A stretch of DNA of 64,000 bases from Sandaracinus amylolyticus (lineage in GTDB: Bacteria > Myxococcota_A > Polyangia > Polyangiales > Sandaracinaceae), in the NCBI RefSeq assembly GCF_000737325.1, contig NZ_CP011125.1, forward strand, positions 8,742,001 through 8,806,000. The letters run 5' to 3'. Below, piece by piece: positions 3,640 to 32,361 of the stretch (the stretch's first letter is position 1; each line of letters starts with the position of its first letter). The position numbers and the translations under genes were made by a program. The notes under the pieces were generated by a model, which was not told where the DNA came from, did no database searches, and saw only the letters and a list, made by a program, of their open reading frames with translations.

Positions 3640-4788
3640 CTATCGGGAACAATGGTGCACGTAGGATCCGATCGCGACGTCGCTCACGATGAAGCAGCGG
3701 TCCGTGGTGAGCAGCCGGCGCGCACGGATATCGCGTGACAGCGAGACGAAATCAGGCGGAAGAACGAAGCGGCGGACGAGCGCGCCGGATCCACGGTCGA
3801 TCTGGCGCACGTCTTCCCCGAGCAAGATCGCGTCTGCGCCGAATCGCTCCACGTGAAGCGCGCCTGCGCGATCGATGCACCATTCCCAGTCGCGACCGGA
3901 GAAGCGACACACGTCGTGCTCGAGCGTCACGTAGAAGCCTTCTGCCCCATCACTCTCCAGCTGAATGTTGGACTCGGGTGGCATCACGCACGCCACCGAG
4001 CCTGTCCGTGCGTCCACGATGACGTTCCCGTCGCCGCGCTCCACCGCGACCCAGTGCCCTGCCGAGTGCGCCAGTCGAACCTCCGACTGACTCCAGAGCG
4101 CAGCGAGGCCTCTTCCTGCGTCGGCGCGCCAGAGTGACACCGCATTGACGTGCTCGGACGTCATGGGCACCCCCAACTGTCCCGTGATCAGGAACGGGTA
4201 CGCATGGTCGAAGAGCTGTCCTTCGGGCTCTTGCGTTTCGCGACCGTCCAGGCTCCGAAGAACCAACGGCGGCATGCCGCCGCGGTCGACCAGAACGTAC
4301 GGCCCGAAGAACGACGCGCGGACCGGTGCGACGTCGGCGCGCCGCCACGCAACACTTCCGCCGCGGACGAGGATGATCTCGCCAGAACGAGCGGAGACGA
4401 CCACCTCGTCGTCGGGCTCGTCCACGTCGGCCGACCACACGCCCGCTGGAACACTCAGCCGCCAGACCGGACGCATGGAGGGAAGGTCGCGAAGCACGAG
4501 CTGAGTCGCGCCCTCGGGCTCCGCGACCAACACGTGCGTCCGACCGACGGCCATCGGAATGCCGGGTCCAGCGCTCGGGCCATCGATCGCGACCACGGGT
4601 GCGTGGCCGACGGGCAGCGCCACGACGGCTGACGGCGGCACACAGACCCGATGCGATCCGGAACCGCACGCGAGCACGGAAACAGCCAGCAGGCCCGCGA
4701 CGGCACGGCTCGCCATTTCGCGCACCGTGCGAGTCTCGCTGCGTGCCGTCGTCGGTGCGGGGCGGGCCCTCTCCTTGCAGCTCGCCAT
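3640..4788 (-). CDS. Lipoprotein of unknown function, probable beta-propeller-like repeats
   Basis: A 382-residue minus-strand protein. The ATG at 4788 follows an AAGGAG-type site six to eight bases upstream, so I prefer it over the internal ATG at 4716. A signal peptide ends in VSVLAC, a lipobox, so the mature protein is probably lipid-anchored. The remainder is beta-rich, with repeated short strands such as WRLSVPAG, VWSADVDEPDD and SLWRADAG, which suggests a WD/PQQ-type propeller, though no family motif is certain. It is divergent from the gene at 5224; the shared upstream region holds a 42-bp tandem array. Function unknown. Confidence 0.75.
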   Translation of the reverse strand: MASCKERARPAPTTARSETRTVREMASRAVAGLLAVSVLACGSGSHRVCVPPSAVVALPVGHAPVVAIDGPSAGPGIPMAVGRTHVLVAEPEGATQLVLRDLPSMRPVWRLSVPAGVWSADVDEPDDEVVVSARSGEIILVRGGSVAWRRADVAPVRASFFGPYVLVDRGGMPPLVLRSLDGRETQEPEGQLFDHAYPFLITGQLGVPMTSEHVNAVSLWRADAGRGLAALWSQSEVRLAHSAGHWVAVERGDGNVIVDARTGSVACVMPPESNIQLESDGAEGFYVTLEHDVCRFSGRDWEWCIDRAGALHVERFGADAILLGEDVRQIDRGSGALVRRFVLPPDFVSLSRDIRARRLLTTDRCFIVSDVAIGSYVHHCSR

Positions 4789-4866
4789 CGGCTCCTTCCC
4801 TACATCGGCGCGTGTTCCCGATCGTCCCGAAGTCGTAGCGCGAAAGCACCAATCCGGATGTTCGTC

Positions 4867-5115
4867 GATGCGTCCAGCTCGTGCCTCGATGGGTCGACCC
4901 TTCGGGCGACCAGTCCAGCTCGAATCGCGATGGGTCGGCCCTCCGGGCGACTCAATCCAGCTCGACGTTCGATGGGTCGACTCTTCGGGCGACCCAGTCC
5001 AGCTCGAACCGCGACGGGTCGACCCTTCGGGCGACTCAGTCCAGCTCGACGTGTGATGGGTCGACCCTTCGTTCGCCCCAATCGAGCTCGTTGGTCGGTG
5101 GGTCGAACCATCACG
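4867..5115. repeat. 42-bp tandem repeat array (about six copies)
   Basis: The core GGGTCGACCC (a perfect 10-bp palindrome) or a variant recurs at 4891, 4932, 4974, 5016, 5058 and 5100, giving spacings of 41, 42, 42, 42 and 42 bases. Between cores lie TTCGGGCGAC and CAGTCCAGCTCGA segments. Because 42 is a multiple of three, all frames stay open, which produces long spurious reading frames on both strands. The array fills most of the 435-bp region between two divergent genes (starts at 4788 and 5224). It may be a stretch of binding sites spaced by four helical turns; that is inference. Confidence 0.9.
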
Positions 5116-5223
5116 CTCCGAAATCGACGTCGGTCGCGCAACGGTCGCCCGCTCGGTCCGACGAAGGGCCATCTGCGCGGGGCACCTCGGCCCCGTGCCC
5201 TCCCCTCTCGACCTCGAGGAGAC

Positions 5224-6012
5224 ATGGCCGTGGGCATCCTTCCGAACGACAGTCCGATCTACTTCCACTCGCCCCGCTTCGACGGGCCTTCCGGCGTGCT
5301 GCTGGTGCGGCGCCTCATCAAACACGCGCCCGCCGATCCCTCGCCGCTGCTGCGCCGCGTGCTCCGGCAGATGCGCACCGACGGCGAGGCGCTGCGCGTC
5401 GTCATCCAGGAGCGCGACGCGGCCAGCCCGGCGCGCAGTCGGCCGTTCGGCCTCGCGCACGCACGTGCGTGGAGCGCGCTGCACGCGCGTCTCGACGCCG
5501 GCACCAAGCTCGCGACCGACGTGTATCCGCTCGCGCCGCGCGCGGCGGAGCTGATCGAGTCGATCTTCCCGAACGGGCTCGTGTTCGTCGCGGGCAACTA
5601 CGACACCGCGTTCTTCGAGGGCGAGACGCGTCTCGCGAAGATCGTAGAGCGCGTCGAGCGCGACGTGATCGCGATCGCGGGCGCGCCGTTCCTCGACGGC
5701 GTGCGCATCACCCACGCTGCCCTCGGCGAGGTGCTGGGGCTCGGCCGCTCGACGCCCGAGGTGCCGAGCACGACGGCGGTGCAGGACGCGATCGCGCGCA
5801 CGATGAAGTCGGTCGCGGCCTACAGCCGCGTGCTGGTCGCGGAGCTCGACGAGGACGACGAGGCGTCGGTCGCGCGGTTCCGGCGCGCGGTGGGGCCGCT
5901 CGACGCCTACCGCGCGTCGACGCGTGCGAGCGCCGATCAGCCGCAGGTCGAGCCGACGCCCGGCGACGACGACCCGGACGAGCCGCTGCCGCCGACGCCG
6001 CCGGTCTCGTGA
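5224..6012 (+). CDS. Hypothetical protein with acidic, proline-rich tail
   Basis: A 262-residue protein beginning at an ATG preceded by GAGGAG. No signal peptide or membrane span is seen, so it is probably cytoplasmic. Residues 1-220 look like a mixed alpha/beta fold with a hydrophobic VLLVRRLI stretch near 28 and a helical second half; the last 30 residues are a low-complexity tail rich in Asp, Glu and Pro. I do not recognise a family. It is transcribed away from the 42-bp repeat array, and the following lipoprotein gene starts 77 bp downstream. Codon use matches the neighbours, so I consider it real. Confidence 0.72.
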   Translation: MAVGILPNDSPIYFHSPRFDGPSGVLLVRRLIKHAPADPSPLLRRVLRQMRTDGEALRVVIQERDAASPARSRPFGLAHARAWSALHARLDAGTKLATDVYPLAPRAAELIESIFPNGLVFVAGNYDTAFFEGETRLAKIVERVERDVIAIAGAPFLDGVRITHAALGEVLGLGRSTPEVPSTTAVQDAIARTMKSVAAYSRVLVAELDEDDEASVARFRRAVGPLDAYRASTRASADQPQVEPTPGDDDPDEPLPPTPPVS

Positions 6013-6884: not shown

Positions 6885-7667
6885 TCAGGCGACGAACGTC
6901 GCGACGATCGGCGCGACCACGTCGGGCGCGGCGCCGTGGTCCTGCCCGTCGAGCACTTGGTAGCGTCCGTCGGGGAGCAGCTCCGCGATGCGCTTCGCGG
7001 TGTCGCGGAAGAACGGCGCGCTCTCGGTGCCTGCGAGCACGAGCGTCGGGATCCGGATCGCGCGCACCAGCTCGCGCGGGATGACGCCGCCGGTTCGCAG
7101 CTCGCCCATCACCTCGAAGTCGTGGAGCATCGTGGGCGCCATCGCGAGCATCTTCGGGTCGCGCGCCATCGCCTCGATCATCTCGGGCGGGACCCCTGCC
7201 GCGCCGAGGAACGTCGTGATCGCCTCGGCGCGCCGGTCCTCGTGCAGCAGGTCGCGCACCTGCTCCGCGAGCCCTCGCGCGCCGCGCACGCTCTCGTCGT
7301 CGTCTCCGCCGTACGGGGGCTCGTGCAGCACGAGCTTGGTGATCGCGAGCCCGCGCACCGCAGCGTTCAGCGCGAGCGCCGCGCCCGACGAGTGACCGTA
7401 GACCGCCGCGCTCCCACCGACCTCGGCGATCAGCGCGGCGATGTCCTCGATCTCGCGCTCGAGCGAGCACGGCGCTCGATTGCCGCTCTCGCCGCGACCG
7501 CGACGGTCGTAGTCGATCGCCGTCAGCCGGCTCGCGAGCTCGTGCGCGAGCGGGCGGGTGCGATCGCGATCACACAGGATGCCTCCCACGACGATCACCG
7601 GGGCGCCTCGCCCGCGACGATCGAACGCGATGCGCGTGCCGTCCTTCGACGTGACGAAGCTCGTCAT
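6885..7667 (-). CDS. Alpha/beta hydrolase
   Basis: A 260-residue soluble protein of the alpha/beta-hydrolase fold. It has the early glycine-rich VVGGILCD turn (oxyanion region), a nucleophile elbow GHSSG near residue 92 giving the catalytic Ser, a late Asp candidate in the TLVLAGTES strand region, and the final His in DGQDHGA near 245. The substrate cannot be read from the sequence. The ATG overlaps the stop of the upstream membrane gene by four bases (ATGA), so it is translationally coupled and is the last gene of the ECF42 cluster that starts at 10634. Confidence 0.9.
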   Translation of the reverse strand: MTSFVTSKDGTRIAFDRRGRGAPVIVVGGILCDRDRTRPLAHELASRLTAIDYDRRGRGESGNRAPCSLEREIEDIAALIAEVGGSAAVYGHSSGAALALNAAVRGLAITKLVLHEPPYGGDDDESVRGARGLAEQVRDLLHEDRRAEAITTFLGAAGVPPEMIEAMARDPKMLAMAPTMLHDFEVMGELRTGGVIPRELVRAIRIPTLVLAGTESAPFFRDTAKRIAELLPDGRYQVLDGQDHGAAPDVVAPIVATFVA

Positions 7668-8077
7668 GCGCGCGCTCCGCGAAGGAGACCGCCCAGCCAC
7701 ACGCTCGGCAGCGCCGTCGCGGCGACCGCGACTCCGTACCACTTCGGCCCGAATTCCGGGCCTGCGTCCCACGTCGCGATCGCGCCGACGGTGCCCGCGA
7801 GCAGCCCGATCGCGCCGAGCACCCCGACGTGCGTCATCGGTCGCGCGGGCGCGAGACGCGCGGTGAGCCACCCGCCCGCGACGCTCACGACGACTCGATA
7901 GCCGAGCGCGAGCACGAACAGCGGCTCCGCCATCGGCTGTCCGAGCGGCGGATAGATCCCGGTCGCGTGCAGCACCATGTCGATCGCGGTCGACACCACC
8001 GCCACGACGAGCGCGCCGGCGAGCACGGCGCGCGTGCTGCGCAGCGCCGACGGGACGAGCGTGAGCGAGGTGCTCAT
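7664..8077 (-). CDS. Small four-helix membrane protein
   Basis: A 137-residue protein with about four hydrophobic segments, roughly residues 15-38, 49-72, 80-100 and 112-132, and almost no soluble part. Its last codons overlap the start of the hydrolase gene (7664-7667), and it follows the DoxX gene by one base. This tight packing places it in the ECF42 operon. I do not recognise the family; small membrane proteins of unknown function are common around such sigma factors. Confidence 0.82.
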   Translation of the reverse strand: MSTSLTLVPSALRSTRAVLAGALVVAVVSTAIDMVLHATGIYPPLGQPMAEPLFVLALGYRVVVSVAGGWLTARLAPARPMTHVGVLGAIGLLAGTVGAIATWDAGPEFGPKWYGVAVAATALPSVWLGGLLRGARA

Positions 8078-8078
8078 C

Positions 8079-8486
8079 TCACTTCCCTCGCAAGAGCGCG
8101 ATCACGCGCGCGTCGCGCAGGGCGAGCGAGCCCCAGAGCATCGCGGCGATCACCAGCGGGAACCAGAACGGCGTCTCGCTGCGCACGTGGATCGCGACCG
8201 CGCCGCCGAGGAACCCGGTGAACGCGAGCGCACCGAGCAACGACGTGCGCGGCACGAGGTAGAGCGCGAGGCACGCGAGCTCGAGCGCGCCGATCACCGG
8301 CGCGAGGTGCATCGGGATGCCGAGCCGCGCGTGCGCCTCGACGACGCCCTCGACGGTCGTGAACTTCACGAGCCCGTCGACGAGCAGGAACAGGGCGGCG
8401 AGCCCACCGAGGATGCGTCCGGTCCAGAGGCGCGCCTTCGTCGGCGCGATCGAGACGGGCTGCTGCTGCGTGAGTGCGATGTCCAT
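8079..8486 (-). CDS. DoxX-like membrane protein
   Basis: A 135-residue integral membrane protein with four predicted helices (about 22-42, 60-80, 85-105, 112-130). The pattern GRILGGLAALFLLVDGLVK followed by a Glu-containing second helix (IGALELACLALYL) fits the DoxX-like group of small quinone-linked or redox-sensing membrane proteins. The start at 8486 has a good AAGGAGAG site. It lies between the VOC gene and a small membrane gene in one minus-strand operon. The exact role is unknown; the family call is fairly safe. Confidence 0.85.
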   Translation of the reverse strand: MDIALTQQQPVSIAPTKARLWTGRILGGLAALFLLVDGLVKFTTVEGVVEAHARLGIPMHLAPVIGALELACLALYLVPRTSLLGALAFTGFLGGAVAIHVRSETPFWFPLVIAAMLWGSLALRDARVIALLRGK

Positions 8487-8499
8487 GTTCGTCTCTCCT

Positions 8500-8928
8500 T
8501 CAGGCCTTGGTCGGCGCGGCGGCGCAGTGGAACGTCCACGAGATGCCGAAGCGATCGGTGAGCCCACCGAGCTTCGCGCCGAAGAACGTGTCGTGGAGCG
8601 GGTAGAGCACGCGCCCGCCCGCGGCGAGCGCGTCGAACTTCGCAGCGGCCTCGGCGGCGTCGTCGAAGTCGAGCGACACGTGGACGCGGCTCGCCGTCGC
8701 GACCTCCATGCCGGGCGGTGCATCGCTGAGCAGGACGCGCGACGCGCCGAGGCGGAGCACGCAGTGCATCACGCGCGCCGCATGGCCCGGCACCGACGCG
8801 AACTCCTTCACGTCGCCGTAGCGCATGATCCGCTCGACCTGCGCGCCGAGCGCGCGCTCGTAGAGCGCGATCGCGGCCGCGGCATCACCGTCGAACGAGA
8901 GGTAGGGATCGACCTGCTGGATCGTCAT
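8500..8928 (-). CDS. VOC-family (PhnB/glyoxalase-like) protein
   Basis: A 142-residue protein with the paired beta-alpha-beta-beta-beta modules of the vicinal-oxygen-chelate superfamily. It begins with a YLSFDGDAAAAIALYERALGA stretch typical of PhnB-type members and ends with DRFGISWTFH, where a closing motif with His is usual. It probably acts in the cytosol on a small metabolite, but substrate and metal are unknown. It sits 81 bp downstream of the ECF42 sigma factor and 13 bp before the DoxX gene, a combination often met with this sigma group. Confidence 0.88.
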   Translation of the reverse strand: MTIQQVDPYLSFDGDAAAAIALYERALGAQVERIMRYGDVKEFASVPGHAARVMHCVLRLGASRVLLSDAPPGMEVATASRVHVSLDFDDAAEAAAKFDALAAGGRVLYPLHDTFFGAKLGGLTDRFGISWTFHCAAAPTKA

Positions 8929-26599: not shown

Positions 26600-27970
26600 A
26601 TGACCGAGTGGACGTTCGACGCCGACGACCTGGACGAGGACGAGGAGGACGCAGATCCGCCGCCCGGCCCAGCCGAGCTGCGCTTGGCCCGCGCGCTCGC
26701 GCTCGCGTTCCTCGGCACCGACGGACGCCGGCGCGCGATGATCGAAGCCGCGCTCGCGACGCTGCACGTGCCCGACGAGGCGCGCGCACGCGCGTGGATC
26801 GGCGCGCTCGTCGCGCTCGTGCGGCGCACCTTCGATCCGCTAAGGCGCGCGTCGCTCGACGAGCTCACGACGACGATCGCGCATGGTCGCGCGCTCGCGC
26901 GACGCGACCGCGGCGTCCACGTGGTGCGCTGGGTGGCCACGCCCGGCGAGATGCGCGCGCCGCGATGGGACGTGCCGCGGATCGACACGGTGGGCGATCT
27001 CGCGCGCTGGCTCGACGTCGAGATCGGCGAGCTCGACTGGCTCGCGGATCGGCGCGCGATGTTGGTGCGCGCGCGCGTCGGCCCATTGCATCACTACGTG
27101 CGCACGTGGGTGCCGAAGCCGAGCGGCGGCGCTCGCCTCATCGAGGCGCCGAAGGCGCGGCTCGCCGCGATCCAGCGCCGCGTGCTGCGCGAGGTCCTCG
27201 AGCGAGTCCCGATGCACGACGTCGCGCACGGCTTCCGGCGCGGGCGCTCGGTCGCCACGTTCGTCGCGCCGCACGTCGGACGTGCCGTCGTGGTGCGCGT
27301 CGACCTCGAGGACTTCTTCGCGAGCGTCACGCGCGGCCGCGTGATCGGCATCTTCCGCAGCGCGGGCTACCCGGAGGAGATCGCGCGCACGCTCGCTGCG
27401 CTCTGCACCACGCGCACGCCGGCGTCGGAGATGCGCGGCATCGAGCACGCGGTGCGCGCGCGGCTGCGCGTCCCGCACTTGCCGCAGGGCGCGCCGACGT
27501 CGCCTGCGCTCGCGAGCCTCGCGGCGTTCCGTCTGGATGCGCGCATCGAGGGCCTCGCTCGCGCGGTCGGCGCGCGATGCACGCGGTATGCGGACGACGT
27601 CGCGCTCTCGTTCGAGCGCGATCGATCCCACGGCGCGATCGATCGTGTGATCGCGCGCATCGCCGAGATCGCGCGCGAGGAGGGCTTTGGCGTCGCGTCG
27701 CACAAGACGCGCGTCATGCGCCGCGGCGCGCGCCAGTCGCTCGCCGGCGTGGTGGTGAACGAGAGGCCCGCGGTCGCGCGCGAGGAGTACGAGCGACTGC
27801 GCGCGATCCTCCATCGCGCGGCGACGCGAGGCCCGAGCCCCGACGAGCTCGGGGCGCATCGCGATCTGCGCGCTCACCTCGCAGGGCGCATCGCGTGGAT
27901 CGCCCAGTGGAGCGAGCGTCGCGGCGCGAAGCTGGCGGCCATGCTCGCCCGCATCGACTGGAGCGCGTGA
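26600..27970 (+). CDS. Retron-type reverse transcriptase
   Basis: A 456-residue reverse transcriptase. Motifs in order: WVPKPSGGARLIEAPK (about 170-185), a retron domain-X-like HGFRRGRSVATFVAPHVG, catalytic VDLEDFFASV (234-243), LPQGAPTSPALASL (about 294-307), YADDVALSF (about 330-338), and RQSLAGVVVN (about 377-386), which corresponds to the retron VTG region but reads LAG. The Asn of the usual NAxxH motif is replaced by Val. The first 165 residues are an extension like that of myxobacterial retron enzymes. No group II maturase, endonuclease or DGR partner is nearby. The start has no strong ribosome site. Confidence 0.88.
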   Translation: MTEWTFDADDLDEDEEDADPPPGPAELRLARALALAFLGTDGRRRAMIEAALATLHVPDEARARAWIGALVALVRRTFDPLRRASLDELTTTIAHGRALARRDRGVHVVRWVATPGEMRAPRWDVPRIDTVGDLARWLDVEIGELDWLADRRAMLVRARVGPLHHYVRTWVPKPSGGARLIEAPKARLAAIQRRVLREVLERVPMHDVAHGFRRGRSVATFVAPHVGRAVVVRVDLEDFFASVTRGRVIGIFRSAGYPEEIARTLAALCTTRTPASEMRGIEHAVRARLRVPHLPQGAPTSPALASLAAFRLDARIEGLARAVGARCTRYADDVALSFERDRSHGAIDRVIARIAEIAREEGFGVASHKTRVMRRGARQSLAGVVVNERPAVAREEYERLRAILHRAATRGPSPDELGAHRDLRAHLAGRIAWIAQWSERRGAKLAAMLARIDWSA

Positions 27971-28020: not shown

Positions 28021-28992
28021 GTGCTCCGCGTCGCGCTCCTGATCGCCCTCGTCGCGTGCTGCGTCGCGCCCGCGCCGACCCGTGCCCAGGAGCGCGCGCT
28101 CACCGACGCGATCACCGTCGACGGCCGCGATCCATGTCTCGAGGCCCCGCGGCTCGCGACCCAGGTCGGTGCCTGGCTCGAGCGCGACCGCATCGCCGAC
28201 GCGCTCGGCGTCTCCGTTCGCACCGACGCGGGCGCCACGTCGTTCGTCATCACCCACGGCGGCGAGGAGGTCGCGACCCGCCGCTTCGATCGCCTGCCCT
28301 CCGAGTGCCCCGACCGCCGCGCCGCGGTCGCGCTCGCGATCGCGCTCGCGCTCGACGCCGCGATCCTCGAGTCCATCGGCATCCCTGCGCCCGCGCCCGC
28401 CGTCGCGCCGACGCCGACTCCCGATCCCACGCCGCCGCGCGTCGACCCGCCTCCTCCGCCGGCCGGAGAGCGCCCCGCGTTCTCGATCGAGCTCGAGGCG
28501 TGGCTCGCGCTCGAGCTCCTGCCCGACCCCGCGCTCGGCGGCCTCCTCGCGGTGTCGTGGATCATCGATCCGGGCGTGCGCATCCGTGGTGGCGTGCTCG
28601 CAACGCAGCTGGTCGGCGCCTCGGTCGTGCCCGGTGGCGCGGACGTCTCGCTCCTCACCGGCCGCATCGACGCGTGCGTCGATCGCAGCGTCCTGCCACA
28701 CGTCCTGCTCGGTGGATGCGCCGGTGTGCTCGGCGGCGCGCTCCTCACGAGCGGACGCGATCTGCCGACCGTCTACGCGCCGGTGCTGCCCTGGGCCGGT
28801 GCCGCCGTGCGCGCGGAGCTGCGCTGGCTGCCCGTCGACCCGCTTGCGCTCACCATCGGCGCCGAGGGAGTGTTCTCCTTCGTGCAGCCCAGGCTCGACG
28901 TCGGCGACGGAACCGGTGGTGTGGTCGCGTCGCGCTCACTCTCGACGGCGGGGCTCGCCATCGTGATCGCGACAGCCTTGGTGATCGAATGA
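28021..28992 (+). CDS. Secreted protein of unknown function linked to ECF sigma factor
   Basis: A 323-residue protein from a GTG start with a clear signal peptide (VALLIALVACCVAPAPTRAQ). Residues 30-115 form an alpha/beta domain with two cysteines, residues 120-150 are a Pro/Thr-rich spacer, and the rest is beta-rich with repeated Gly-Val strands, which suggests a surface or outer-membrane associated domain. Its stop overlaps the ATG of the sigma factor gene (ATGA), so it belongs to that operon and may be its signal sensor or output. I do not recognise a family. Confidence 0.78.
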   Translation: MLRVALLIALVACCVAPAPTRAQERALTDAITVDGRDPCLEAPRLATQVGAWLERDRIADALGVSVRTDAGATSFVITHGGEEVATRRFDRLPSECPDRRAAVALAIALALDAAILESIGIPAPAPAVAPTPTPDPTPPRVDPPPPPAGERPAFSIELEAWLALELLPDPALGGLLAVSWIIDPGVRIRGGVLATQLVGASVVPGGADVSLLTGRIDACVDRSVLPHVLLGGCAGVLGGALLTSGRDLPTVYAPVLPWAGAAVRAELRWLPVDPLALTIGAEGVFSFVQPRLDVGDGTGGVVASRSLSTAGLAIVIATALVIE

Positions 28993-29552
28993 AGGCCCCC
29001 GCGACCCCCGGTCATGCAGCCATTGCGAGCACGGACGACGCGGAGCCGGAGCGAACCGGCGCCGCGGAGCTGTTCCGGGCGCATGCTGGCTTCGTGGCGG
29101 GTTTCCTCACGCGCATGGGTGCGAGCAACGTGGACGTCGACGATCTCACGCAAGAGGTCTTCCTGGTGGCGCACCGCCGCGGCGGTTACGTCGCCGGGCC
29201 CGCCCGTCCCACGACCTGGCTCGCGGAGATCGCGCTGCGCGTGCTCTCGACCCACCGCCGCACGAAGCGCCGCAAGCCCGAGAAGATGGCGGGCGACGAG
29301 CTCGACGCGATGATCTCGGATCGCGCGGCCGCCGACGACCAGGTCTCGGCGCGGCGTGCGCTCGCTCGCGTGCAGCGTTGTCTCGAGGGCCTCGACGAGG
29401 AGCACCGGGCCGTGTTCGTGCTCTTCGAGCTCGAGGGAGAGCCTTGCAGCGCCATCGCTGCGGCCCTCGGGATCCCCGTGGGCACCGTGTACTCACGGCT
29501 GCATCACGCCCGGAAGAAGTTCACCGACGCGTGGGGAGGGGGGACGCCGTGA
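28989..29552 (+). CDS. ECF RNA polymerase sigma factor
   Basis: A 187-residue ECF sigma factor. Region 2 (about 27-92) reads ELFRAHAGFVAGFLTRMG, VDDLTQEVFLVAHRRG and TTWLAEIALRVLSTHRR; region 4 (about 122-178) has LDEEHRAVFVLFELEGEP and a recognition helix IAAALGIPVGTVYSRLHHARKKF. It is coupled by overlapping start/stop codons to the secreted protein gene upstream (28989-28992) and to the membrane protein gene downstream (29549-29552). The latter is the probable anti-sigma factor. Confidence 0.94.
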   Translation: MKAPATPGHAAIASTDDAEPERTGAAELFRAHAGFVAGFLTRMGASNVDVDDLTQEVFLVAHRRGGYVAGPARPTTWLAEIALRVLSTHRRTKRRKPEKMAGDELDAMISDRAAADDQVSARRALARVQRCLEGLDEEHRAVFVLFELEGEPCSAIAAALGIPVGTVYSRLHHARKKFTDAWGGGTP

Positions 29553-30321: not shown

Positions 30322-30331
30322 TGTCGAGCGC

Positions 30332-30363
30332 GGCTATCCGCTCATCCGGATGAGCGGATAGCC
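30332..30363. promoter_or_regulatory. Perfect 32-bp palindrome upstream of the encapsulin operon
   Basis: The sequence GGCTATCCGCTCATCC is followed at once by its exact reverse complement GGATGAGCGGATAGCC, giving 16-bp arms with no spacer. It lies ten bases after the putative anti-sigma gene and about 85 bases before the cargo gene. With no loop and no T-run it is a poor terminator; an operator for a dimeric regulator is more likely. It is the strongest simple palindrome noticed in the window. Confidence 0.6.
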
Positions 30364-30448
30364 ACCTTCGCTCACGACACCAATCGAGTCCTCGCTGCCG
30401 GGACCCGAGCTCGTGCGCGCTTGACGCGCTTCGACGGCGCGCCCCACG

Positions 30449-30790
30449 ATGCCCGGAATGGCGAGCGAAGAGCGCGCGCACGGCCCTGCGACCAAGGTCG
30501 CGATCCGGAACCTCTCGGCCCTCAAGCCCGAGCACCAGCAGCTCCTCCGCACGCTGCTGGCCGACGCCGGCATGGCGACCGCGACGCTCGAGACGCTGGT
30601 CGAGCATCTCCTCGAAGAAGAGGACACGCGGCTGCAGACCGCGCTCTCGCGCGTGAAGGCGGGGCACTCGACGGTCGAGGCCGCGTCGGCGGCGAGCGCG
30701 CGCCGCGGCGCGACGGTGGGCTCGCTGCGCACCGAGCGTGGAAGCGCGCCGGGCGGCGCGCGCGGCACCGTGGGATCGCTGCGCAAGTAA
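30449..30790 (+). CDS. Putative encapsulin cargo protein with two loading peptides
   Basis: A 113-residue protein with a helical domain (residues about 15-80; LVEHLLEEEDTRLQTAL is one helix) and a flexible Gly/Ala/Arg tail. The tail ends in RGTVGSLRK, and about 18 residues earlier carries ATVGSLRTE. Both match the family 1 encapsulin loading peptide known from Myxococcus (LTVGSLRR). The shell gene lies two genes downstream on the same strand. The domain lacks the ExxH pattern of encapsulated ferritins and is not a peroxidase or flavin protein, so the cargo type is unfamiliar. An internal ATG at 30458 is an alternative start. Confidence 0.82.
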   Translation: MPGMASEERAHGPATKVAIRNLSALKPEHQQLLRTLLADAGMATATLETLVEHLLEEEDTRLQTALSRVKAGHSTVEAASAASARRGATVGSLRTERGSAPGGARGTVGSLRK

Positions 30791-30791
30791 C

Positions 30792-31499
30792 GTGGCGCGC
30801 ACCATCGCGATCACGATCGCCGCGGCGCTGATCGCGGGGATCGCGGGCTACACGCTCGGCGCGTCGAGCGCACCGCAGGTGGCGATCGAGCCCTCGCCCG
30901 AGCCCGACCGCGAGCCGCGCGAGGAGGACGACGCGCTCGCGCTCGAGTCGGATCCCTCTGCGCTGCAGGCCTGTGAGGACCGACTCGCGTCCGCCGAAGC
31001 GGCGCTCGCGCTGCGACCGGCGCGCGCCGAGGGCCCTGCGATCGATCCCGCGACGCTGCCCGAGCCGGCGCGCGTGGCGCTCGAGTCGCCCGAGGTCTCG
31101 CGCGCCATCGACGCCGAGGTCGAGCGCCGCATGACCGAGCGCATCGAGCAGGAGCGCGCGCGCCGCGAGGCCGAGTGGGCGGCGCGTCGGGCCGAGCTGC
31201 GCGAGCGCCTCCGCGCGATCGGCATCGACGACGCGACGATGGGCGAGATCACGCCGACGCTCTGCGCGATCCGCGACGTGTACCGGCAGGCGTGGCAGGA
31301 CCGGCGCGCGGGCGCTGGCGGCGGTGGCGGCGGCGATGCGGGCGTGCGCGGTGGACGGCGCGCGCTGCGCGAGGCGACGCGCCCGATGCGCGAGGAGGTC
31401 GAGCAGGCGCTCGGCCCCGAGCGGACGGCCCGCCTCGAGGACGAAGGCGGCATGCGCGCGCTGGGGATGGCCGCGGAGTGCGGCGACGGACCGCGCTGA
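30792..31499 (+). CDS. Membrane-anchored helical protein in the encapsulin operon
   Basis: A 235-residue protein starting with GTG one base after the cargo stop. One N-terminal transmembrane helix (IAITIAAALIAGIAGYTLG, residues 4-23) is followed by an acidic Pro/Glu stretch and a long charged helical, probably coiled-coil region (residues about 100-160, VERRMTERIEQERARREAE), a Gly-rich hinge and a final helix with one cysteine. No encapsulin loading peptide is present. It lies between cargo and shell genes, so a membrane tether or regulator is possible. I do not recognise a family. Confidence 0.75.
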   Translation: MARTIAITIAAALIAGIAGYTLGASSAPQVAIEPSPEPDREPREEDDALALESDPSALQACEDRLASAEAALALRPARAEGPAIDPATLPEPARVALESPEVSRAIDAEVERRMTERIEQERARREAEWAARRAELRERLRAIGIDDATMGEITPTLCAIRDVYRQAWQDRRAGAGGGGGGDAGVRGGRRALREATRPMREEVEQALGPERTARLEDEGGMRALGMAAECGDGPR

Positions 31500-31539
31500 C
31501 GGCGCTGCAGCGACGCGCGCGTTCGTCTACTCTCGCGGC

Positions 31540-32361
31540 ATGAACCAGAGCCCGCTCACCGACGAGCAGTGGGAGTTCCTGCAGCAAGAGGTCGTGCGTG
31601 AAGCGCGACGCACGTTGGTCGGTCGCCGACTCCTCGGCATCTACGGTCCACTCGGCGCCGGTCTCGAGTCGGTCGCGGTCGAGCAGTACGGCCCGGACGA
31701 AGACGCGGAGATCGAGTTCCTGAGCCGCACCGATCCCAAGCCGATCCACGGCGCGAACGAGGTCATCCTCCGCGTCCCGATCCTCTACAAGGACTTCGTC
31801 CTCCACTGGCGCGACGTCGCCTTCAGCAAGAAGCTCGGCGCGCCGCTCGACGCGTCGCGCGCGATCCGCGCGGCGCACGCGGTCGCGGATCGCGAGGACA
31901 CGCTGATCTTCAACGGCGATCCGCGCCTCGGGATCGAGGGCCTGCTGAACGCGCGCGGGCGCAAGACGGTCGCGCGCAGCGACTGGACGAAGTACGGCAA
32001 CGCGTACCGCGACGTCGTGCGCGCGACCGAGGTGCTGCTCGAGAGCAACCACCACCGCCCGTTCGCGCTCGCGGTGTCGGCGCAGGACTACGCGCGCCTG
32101 GTGCAGCAGCTCGAGGGCCAGTTCGCGCCGGAGATCGACTCGATCCTGCGCCTGTGCGACGACGGCGTGTACACCACGCCGACGATCCCGCAGGGCAAGG
32201 CGGTCCTGCTCTCGACCGGCGATCAGAACTTCGACATCGCGGTCACCGAGGACCTCACGATCGCGTACCTCGGCGAGCGCGATCAGGACTATCCATTCCG
32301 CGTCTACGAGTGCCTCGCGCTGCGCATCAAGCGCCCGAGCGCGATCTGCACGATCGAGTGA
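31540..32361 (+). CDS. Encapsulin shell protein (family 1)
   Basis: A 273-residue HK97-fold protein that assembles into a hollow compartment. It follows the family 1 layout throughout: PLTDEQWEFLQQEVVREA (N-terminal arm), VGRRLLGIYGPLGAGLESVAV, PILYKDFVLHWRDV (E-loop region), DTLIFNGDPRLGIEGLLNARG, PFALAVSAQDYARL (P-domain) and a C-terminal FDIAVTEDLTIAYLGERDQDYPFRVYECLALR. Length and sequence agree with Thermotoga and Myxococcus shells. No phage packaging, tail or integrase genes are nearby, so it is not a prophage capsid. It ends the operon with the tagged cargo and is followed by a strong hairpin. Confidence 0.95.
   Translation: MNQSPLTDEQWEFLQQEVVREARRTLVGRRLLGIYGPLGAGLESVAVEQYGPDEDAEIEFLSRTDPKPIHGANEVILRVPILYKDFVLHWRDVAFSKKLGAPLDASRAIRAAHAVADREDTLIFNGDPRLGIEGLLNARGRKTVARSDWTKYGNAYRDVVRATEVLLESNHHRPFALAVSAQDYARLVQQLEGQFAPEIDSILRLCDDGVYTTPTIPQGKAVLLSTGDQNFDIAVTEDLTIAYLGERDQDYPFRVYECLALRIKRPSAICTIE

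What the first reader, a model, noticed from the sequence alone, without database searches (positions are those of the whole stretch)
30449..32361. Encapsulin operon whose cargo carries two loading peptides and is of an unfamiliar type
Seen: a 113-residue protein ends in RGTVGSLRK and has a second copy ATVGSLRTE about 18 residues earlier; an intact encapsulin shell gene lies on the same strand 750 bp downstream. Known: myxobacterial family 1 encapsulins load cargo through LTVGSLRR-like tags, and cargos are normally ferritin-like, peroxidase or flavin proteins. Inference: this cargo is none of those, since its helical domain lacks the iron-site ExxH pattern, so the compartment may have a new function. 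Two tags could raise occupancy or bridge two shell subunits.
Basis: partly seen in the sequence, partly recalled or inferred. Interest (0 to 1): 0.92.

Follow-up and report, generated by a model that had tools for sequence, protein, structure and literature searches.

The report
Encapsulin with small double-tagged helical cargo
A soil-type bacterium carries a real protein-shell organelle gene next to a small cargo protein with two shell-docking tags; the cargo belongs to no described cargo family, but it sits where related shells keep their iron-oxidising cargo and resembles part of it, so it is probably an odd, stripped-down iron-handling cargo rather than a wholly new kind of compartment.

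Summary
The ORF at 30449-30790 has TVGSLR at residues 89-94 and 107-112. An intact family 1 encapsulin shell lies at 31540-32361, and a membrane-anchored protein gene (30792-31499) sits between them. The tagged protein is real and under purifying selection. Relatives found in five other genomes always lie directly upstream of the same shell clade; four Sandaracinaceae have two tags and two more distant genomes have one. It is the only C-terminally TVGSL-tagged protein that the tag searches found in its genome. "Unfamiliar type, new function" is only partly supported. The gene occupies the encB position of other Myxococcota. Its second helix matches the EncB metal helix better than any of 450 shuffled controls and keeps the HxxxE pair. 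A sister-clade shell has a divergent cargo with the same [ED]H-x23-HxxEE pattern. Best explanation: a shortened, divergent ferritin-like cargo with a rewired His/Glu metal site, tethered bivalently inside a T=3-type shell (about 50%). Structure prediction was inconclusive (pLDDT 62), and no biochemistry exists. It is a new variant of a known kind.

The parts
30449..30790 (+). Small tagged cargo gene (113 aa as first ATG; conserved start probably 30458, 110 aa)
   Evidence: dN/dS 0.11-0.41 in three ortholog pairs
30497..30652 (+). Conserved helical domain, residues about 17-68, with KPEH (26-29), LAD-GMA (37-43), LVEHLLEEE (50-58)
   Evidence: invariant columns K26 E28 H29 L33 L37 A38 D39 G41 M42 A43 L50 V51 H53 L54 E56 E57 E58
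30710..30730 (+). Inner targeting peptide ATVGSLR (residues 88-94)
30764..30784 (+). C-terminal targeting peptide GTVGSLR (residues 106-112)
30792..31499 (+). Membrane-anchored, coiled-coil-rich protein of unknown family between cargo and shell; present only in this genome and its congener G182
31540..32361 (+). Family 1 encapsulin shell protein, EncA-type clade
   Evidence: NF041155 E 4.9e-72, PF04454 E 2.9e-58, PDB EncA hits, shell tree
30325..30370 (.). Abutting inverted repeat (23-nt arms, 87% complementary) just after the upstream gene, probably a transcription boundary

Best explanation
This is a family 1 encapsulin operon of the M. xanthus EncA (T=3) type. Its dedicated cargo is a short, strongly diverged ferritin-like (EncB-lineage) protein: two helices that probably pair with another subunit into a four-helix bundle. 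The EncFtn ferroxidase histidine is gone, and the invariant E28/H29 on helix 1 and H53/E57(/E58) on helix 2 would form a re-arranged His/Glu metal site. A flexible tail carries two targeting peptides, which dock each cargo chain to one or two shell subunits on the inner surface, and the compartment handles iron. Shown here: sequence, tags, operon, conservation, and association with one shell clade. Inferred: loading (by analogy with LTVGSLRR tags), T number, dimerisation, metal binding, iron function, and bivalent docking.
For: The tagged gene lies directly upstream of the shell in all six genomes (in this genus with one inserted gene), which is the encB-encA arrangement of other Myxococcota (for M. 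xanthus PMC8229669). The shells of the family form one clade (100/99) inside the EncA-type shells. Profile comparison with EncB-type cargo aligns LVEHLLEEE with the EncB metal helix. The core-versus-core score of 19.4 was reached by 0 of 300 column shuffles and 0 of 150 reversed-block shuffles; reversed sequence gave 12.3. In that register H53-E57 matches the conserved HxxxE pair, E58 matches Glu62 and, without gaps, E28 matches Glu32 of EncFtn (sites described in PMC11202242). The one-tag orthologue is modelled as two long helices, and EncB, EncD and EncC of M. xanthus are among the 62 chains Foldseek ranked highest for it. The sister-clade shell (98/93) has a divergent cargo ending LTVGELIGR with the same [ED]H-x23-HxxEE pattern.
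Against: HMMER finds no ferritin-like match at all. hhalign probability with EncB is only 16-55% and rests mainly on helix 2. The ungapped helix-1 register is my own reading; hhalign prefers a gapped one. The model of the window protein itself is four short helices with pLDDT 62 and no fold match. The Z scores for EncB/C/D (4.8-5.5) lie within the background for helical hairpins. In the G192 relative E58 is Q and E28 is D, so the supposed ferroxidase carboxylates are not strictly kept. The genome already has a canonical EncFtn encapsulin elsewhere, so this one need not store iron.
Confidence: 0.5

Rival explanations
1. The cargo is a new, non-ferritin helical protein that replaced EncB next to the shell; its invariant H29/H53/E56/E57 bind a different cofactor (another metal or heme), so the compartment does different chemistry.
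For: No family match anywhere. Own set of invariant residues. EXXH lost in all members. The similarity to EncB is confined mainly to one acidic helix. Own shell clade.
Against: EncB position and helix-2 similarity above all controls. Short acidic helices are easily matched, but shuffled and reversed controls keep that composition.
Confidence: 0.27
2. The cargo is an EncD-like flavin-dependent ferric reductase rather than a ferroxidase.
For: EncD is also a small M. xanthus cargo, and EncD proteins are ferric reductases, some once mistaken for ferroxidases (PMC11202242). EncD 8vjn aligns to the one-tag model with Z 5.3, tied with EncB. In G192 an FAD-type oxidoreductase-like gene lies just upstream of cargo and shell.
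Against: No sequence match to any PDB chain, which includes EncD. The EncD sequence could not be obtained for a direct comparison. EncD is not encoded next to the shell in M. xanthus.
Confidence: 0.13
3. The protein is a non-enzymatic adaptor or mineral nucleator: acidic EEE patch inside the shell, two tags cross-linking shell subunits to favour the T=3 size.
For: Small size, two tags in four genomes, acidic invariant patch. Cargo presence shifts M. xanthus EncA from mixed T=1/T=3 to T=3 only (PMC11202242).
Against: Invariant histidines and the retained HxxxE pair suggest a defined site. Two relatives have one tag only.
Confidence: 0.08

Closest known systems
EncB/EncC of Myxococcus xanthus (FLP-TP, encapsulated ferritin-like proteins; PDB 7s5c, 7s5k, 7s8t)
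   Same: Small helical protein; EncB is encoded directly upstream of an EncA-type shell; disordered tail, TVGSL-type targeting peptide, similar metal-helix motif with HxxxE.
   Different: Lacks the EXXH histidine, has a shorter domain, two tags in Sandaracinaceae, invariant H29, no significant HMMER match.
IMEF cargo of Firmicutes (PDB 6n63)
   Same: Encapsulated, lacks EXXH; its ferroxidase site uses two His and two Glu (PMC11202242), a composition this cargo could also supply.
   Different: IMEF is a 192-aa four-helix monomer in T=4 shells of Firmicutes; no sequence relation seen.
EncD of M. xanthus (flavin-binding ferric reductase; PDB 8vjn)
   Same: Small tagged cargo of a T=3 EncA-type shell that is not a ferroxidase.
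   Different: Encoded away from the shell; no sequence match found; flavin binding of the present protein untested.
EncFtn system of Haliangium ochraceum / Rhodospirillum rubrum
   Same: Family 1 encapsulin with a C-terminally tagged helical cargo.
   Different: Different shell clade and SLGIGSL tag; the present genome has a separate locus of that kind (L042).

Membership tests
Family 1 encapsulin (shell) | Shell protein matches the family 1 equivalog model | tested here: met
   NF041155 E 4.9e-72, 242 bits against cut-off 100
Family 1 encapsulin (shell) | Cargo with TVGSL-type targeting peptide in the same operon | tested here: met
   two tags, conserved position in six genomes
Family 1 encapsulin (shell) | Assembles into an icosahedral shell and loads the cargo | not testable with these tools
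   needs purification and microscopy
FLP-TP / EncFtn (EncB type) | EXXH motif of the ferroxidase centre in helix 2 | tested here: not met
   EncFtn His65 position is R, A or L in all six members
FLP-TP / EncFtn (EncB type) | Two long helices that dimerise into a four-helix bundle and a decamer | tested here: inconclusive
   one-tag orthologue modelled with helices 2-28 and 33-54 at pLDDT 62; window protein modelled with four short helices
FLP-TP / EncFtn (EncB type) | Sequence homology to EncB/EncFtn | tested here: inconclusive
   no HMMER hit; hhalign above all 450 controls but probability 16-55%
FLP-TP / EncFtn (EncB type) | Gene upstream of the EncA-type shell, C-terminal targeting peptide | tested here: met
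IMEF | About 190-aa four-helix monomer, Firmicutes, T=4 shell | tested here: not met
   110-113 aa, Myxococcota, EncA-type shell
EncD | Flavin-binding ferric reductase | not tested
   EncD sequence not obtainable here; structural second look Z 5.3, within background
DyP peroxidase / hemerythrin / bacterioferritin cargo | Match to the Pfam or NCBIfam model of that family | tested here: not met
   none of these models listed up to E 10

The most novel reading that the evidence does not exclude
A previously undescribed cargo family, not ferritin-like, with a bi-histidine/glutamate site and two docking tags, gives a clade of T=3-type encapsulins in Sandaracinaceae and relatives a chemistry other than iron storage.
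Probability: 0.27. Interest if true: 0.78.

Novelty: new variant of a known kind. Interest (0 to 1): 0.52.

Why it matters
The survey of family 1 encapsulins (PMC8346489) lists a handful of cargo classes and 90 systems it could not assign. This would be a defined, conserved cargo class for such orphan systems. It tests whether the ferroxidase histidine is needed for an encapsulin iron compartment. It also provides a natural case of cargo with two targeting peptides, with one-tag relatives for comparison, which is useful for understanding and engineering loading.

Tried and rejected
A scan of viral contigs found no relatives. Order- and phylum-wide searches added nothing beyond six genomes plus G192; many hits with E between 0.001 and 1 are noise from GC-rich frames. 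Weak VIT1 Pfam hits (best E 0.027, 5 of 6 members) were judged to be chance helical similarity. Foldseek gave no match with E under 1 for either model. VIA second look: unrelated hairpins outrank EncB/C/D; for the window protein nothing reached Z 5. Attempts to reach EncD through tag patterns in related genomes failed, and no M. xanthus-like genome came up. The primary EncB/EncD papers are not held, and no held paper was found that speaks of two targeting peptides on one cargo. Chance origin of the second tag was rejected because it is conserved in four genomes.

Full report
Setting. The window is part of a single-contig 10,327,335-base genome.

Observation. The ORF 30449-30790 encodes 113 residues ending RGTVGSLRK, with a second ATVGSLR 18 residues earlier. 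The start shared with relatives is the fourth codon, Met at 30458. The shell at 31540-32361 is a family 1 encapsulin (NF041155, E 4.9e-72; Linocin_M18, E 2.9e-58), closest in the PDB to 9fy6 and M. xanthus EncA. It is found only in this genome and its congener G182, so it is probably a late insertion in a two-gene unit. An inverted repeat at 30325-30370 separates the operon from the upstream gene, and the next downstream gene is on the other strand.

Tags versus chance. In the whole genome the pattern TVG[ST]L[RS] in GC-rich codons occurs four times and T[VI]GSL 14 times. Apart from this gene, none is the C-terminus of a plausible soluble protein; one lies near the end of a hydrophobic membrane protein and one in an improbable 65-aa frame. 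Codons with A or T in the third position were not covered.

Family. Searches of 184 genomes of the order, about 380 of the phylum, and the GTDB contig collection found relatives in five further genomes at 86, 61, 56, 46 and 44% identity. In every one the gene lies upstream of an orthologous shell on the same strand, with no other gene between except the inserted gene of this genus. Four Sandaracinaceae carry two tags (TVGSLR/TVGSLR, TVGSLR/TVGSLR, TVGDLR/TVGPLR, TVGDLR/TVGDLR); two MAGs of another family carry one. dN/dS is 0.41, 0.39 and 0.11 in three ortholog pairs. Invariant domain residues are K26 E28 H29 L33 L37 A38 D39 G41 M42 A43 L50 V51 H53 L54 E56 E57 E58.

Context of the shell. In most other Myxococcota with EncA-type shells examined, the gene directly upstream encodes an EncB-type ferritin-like protein with EExEH and a C-terminal VGSL-like tag; M. 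xanthus has the same encB-encA order (PMC8229669). A maximum-likelihood tree of 21 shells puts the six present shells in one clade (100/99) and the G192 shell as their sister (98/93), apart from the EncB-type shells. Directly upstream of the G192 shell is a 148-aa protein ending LTVGELIGR. hhalign aligns it over 53 columns in the register H29-H, H53-H, E56E57-EE (probability 32%), and the pattern [ED]H-x23-HxxEE appears in 10 of 200,000 shuffles of it (the pattern was chosen after seeing it). Cargo type therefore tracks a shell lineage.

What the cargo is. No profile library or PDB sequence search gives a significant match. Profile comparison with nine EncB-type cargos aligns LVEHLLEEE with the EncB metal helix. 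With trimmed cores the score is 19.4, against 0 of 300 column shuffles and 0 of 150 reversed-block shuffles reaching it, and 12.3 for the reversed sequence. In this register H53-E57 matches the EncFtn HxxxE pair and E58 the Glu62 ligand; with no gap E28 matches Glu32; the His65 position is R, A or L. The ligand roles are taken from PMC11202242 and residue numbers of the ligands partly from memory of the R. rubrum structure. So the protein fails the defining EXXH test for EncFtn membership, while its second helix is probably related. H29 and H53 are equidistant from the predicted turn (29+53 = 82, loop centre about 41), so they could face each other in a hairpin; this is inference.

Structure. 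AlphaFold2 with five sequences gave mean pLDDT 62 for both attempts. The window protein came out as four short helices and the one-tag orthologue as two long helices, 2-28 and 33-54. Foldseek found nothing significant. In the second look at the 62 best-ranked chains for the orthologue model, EncB (Z 5.5), EncD (5.3) and EncC (4.8) appear, but unrelated hairpins score higher, so this is a hint only.

Other cargo in the genome. No EncB-type gene was found by profile (best E 0.05). A separate canonical EncFtn encapsulin locus exists at about C1:3837-3839 kb with an SLGIGSLR-tagged cargo. The present shell therefore has this protein as its only recognised cargo.

Mechanism and confidence. That this is a bona fide encapsulin cargo I hold at about 0.93 (inferred from tags, synteny and conservation; loading not shown). 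That it is a diverged ferritin-like, iron-handling cargo with a rewired His/Glu site I hold at 0.5. A non-ferritin cargo with another cofactor has 0.27, an EncD-like reductase 0.13, and an adaptor or nucleator 0.08. Two tags probably give bivalent docking, consistent with conservation in four genomes, but one tag suffices in two relatives.

Cargo status, two tags and absence of EXXH are right. The step from missing EXXH to a new function is not secured: IMEF cargo also lacks EXXH and has a ferroxidase centre (PMC11202242), and the synteny and helix similarity point back to the EncB lineage.

Novelty. Family 1 encapsulins are well known, and 90 systems of unassigned operon type were noted in a 2021 survey (PMC8346489). 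A conserved, clade-specific, double-tagged minimal cargo is a new variant of a known kind.

Noticed in passing
window 26600-27970 (+): Stand-alone reverse transcriptase (RVT_1, E 1.8e-20, 456 aa), with a similar gene in synteny in the congener G182; possibly retron-like, no partner examined.
   Followed up: no
window 28977-29552 (+): ECF-type sigma factor gene followed by an overlapping frame with one membrane segment, possibly its anti-sigma partner, just upstream of the encapsulin operon.
   Followed up: no
window 30792-31499 (+): Membrane-anchored coiled-coil protein inserted between cargo and shell only in this genus; its C-terminal part loosely recalls periplasmic metal-sensor (CpxP/Spy-like) proteins by eye, with no family match.
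   Followed up: partly
L042 (own genome C1:3830000-3846000), about 7544-8727: Second encapsulin locus of the genome: canonical EncFtn cargo with EEIEH and SLGIGSLR tag followed by a distant shell (27% identical to the window's shell).
   Followed up: partly
L096 (G192) 4306-5910: FAD-dependent oxidoreductase-like gene directly upstream of a tagged cargo and encapsulin shell; possible electron donor for the compartment.
   Followed up: no
L070 (G247, second shell): A genome with an EncB-type encapsulin has a second, divergent EncA-type shell with no recognisable tagged cargo within 1.5 kb.
   Followed up: no
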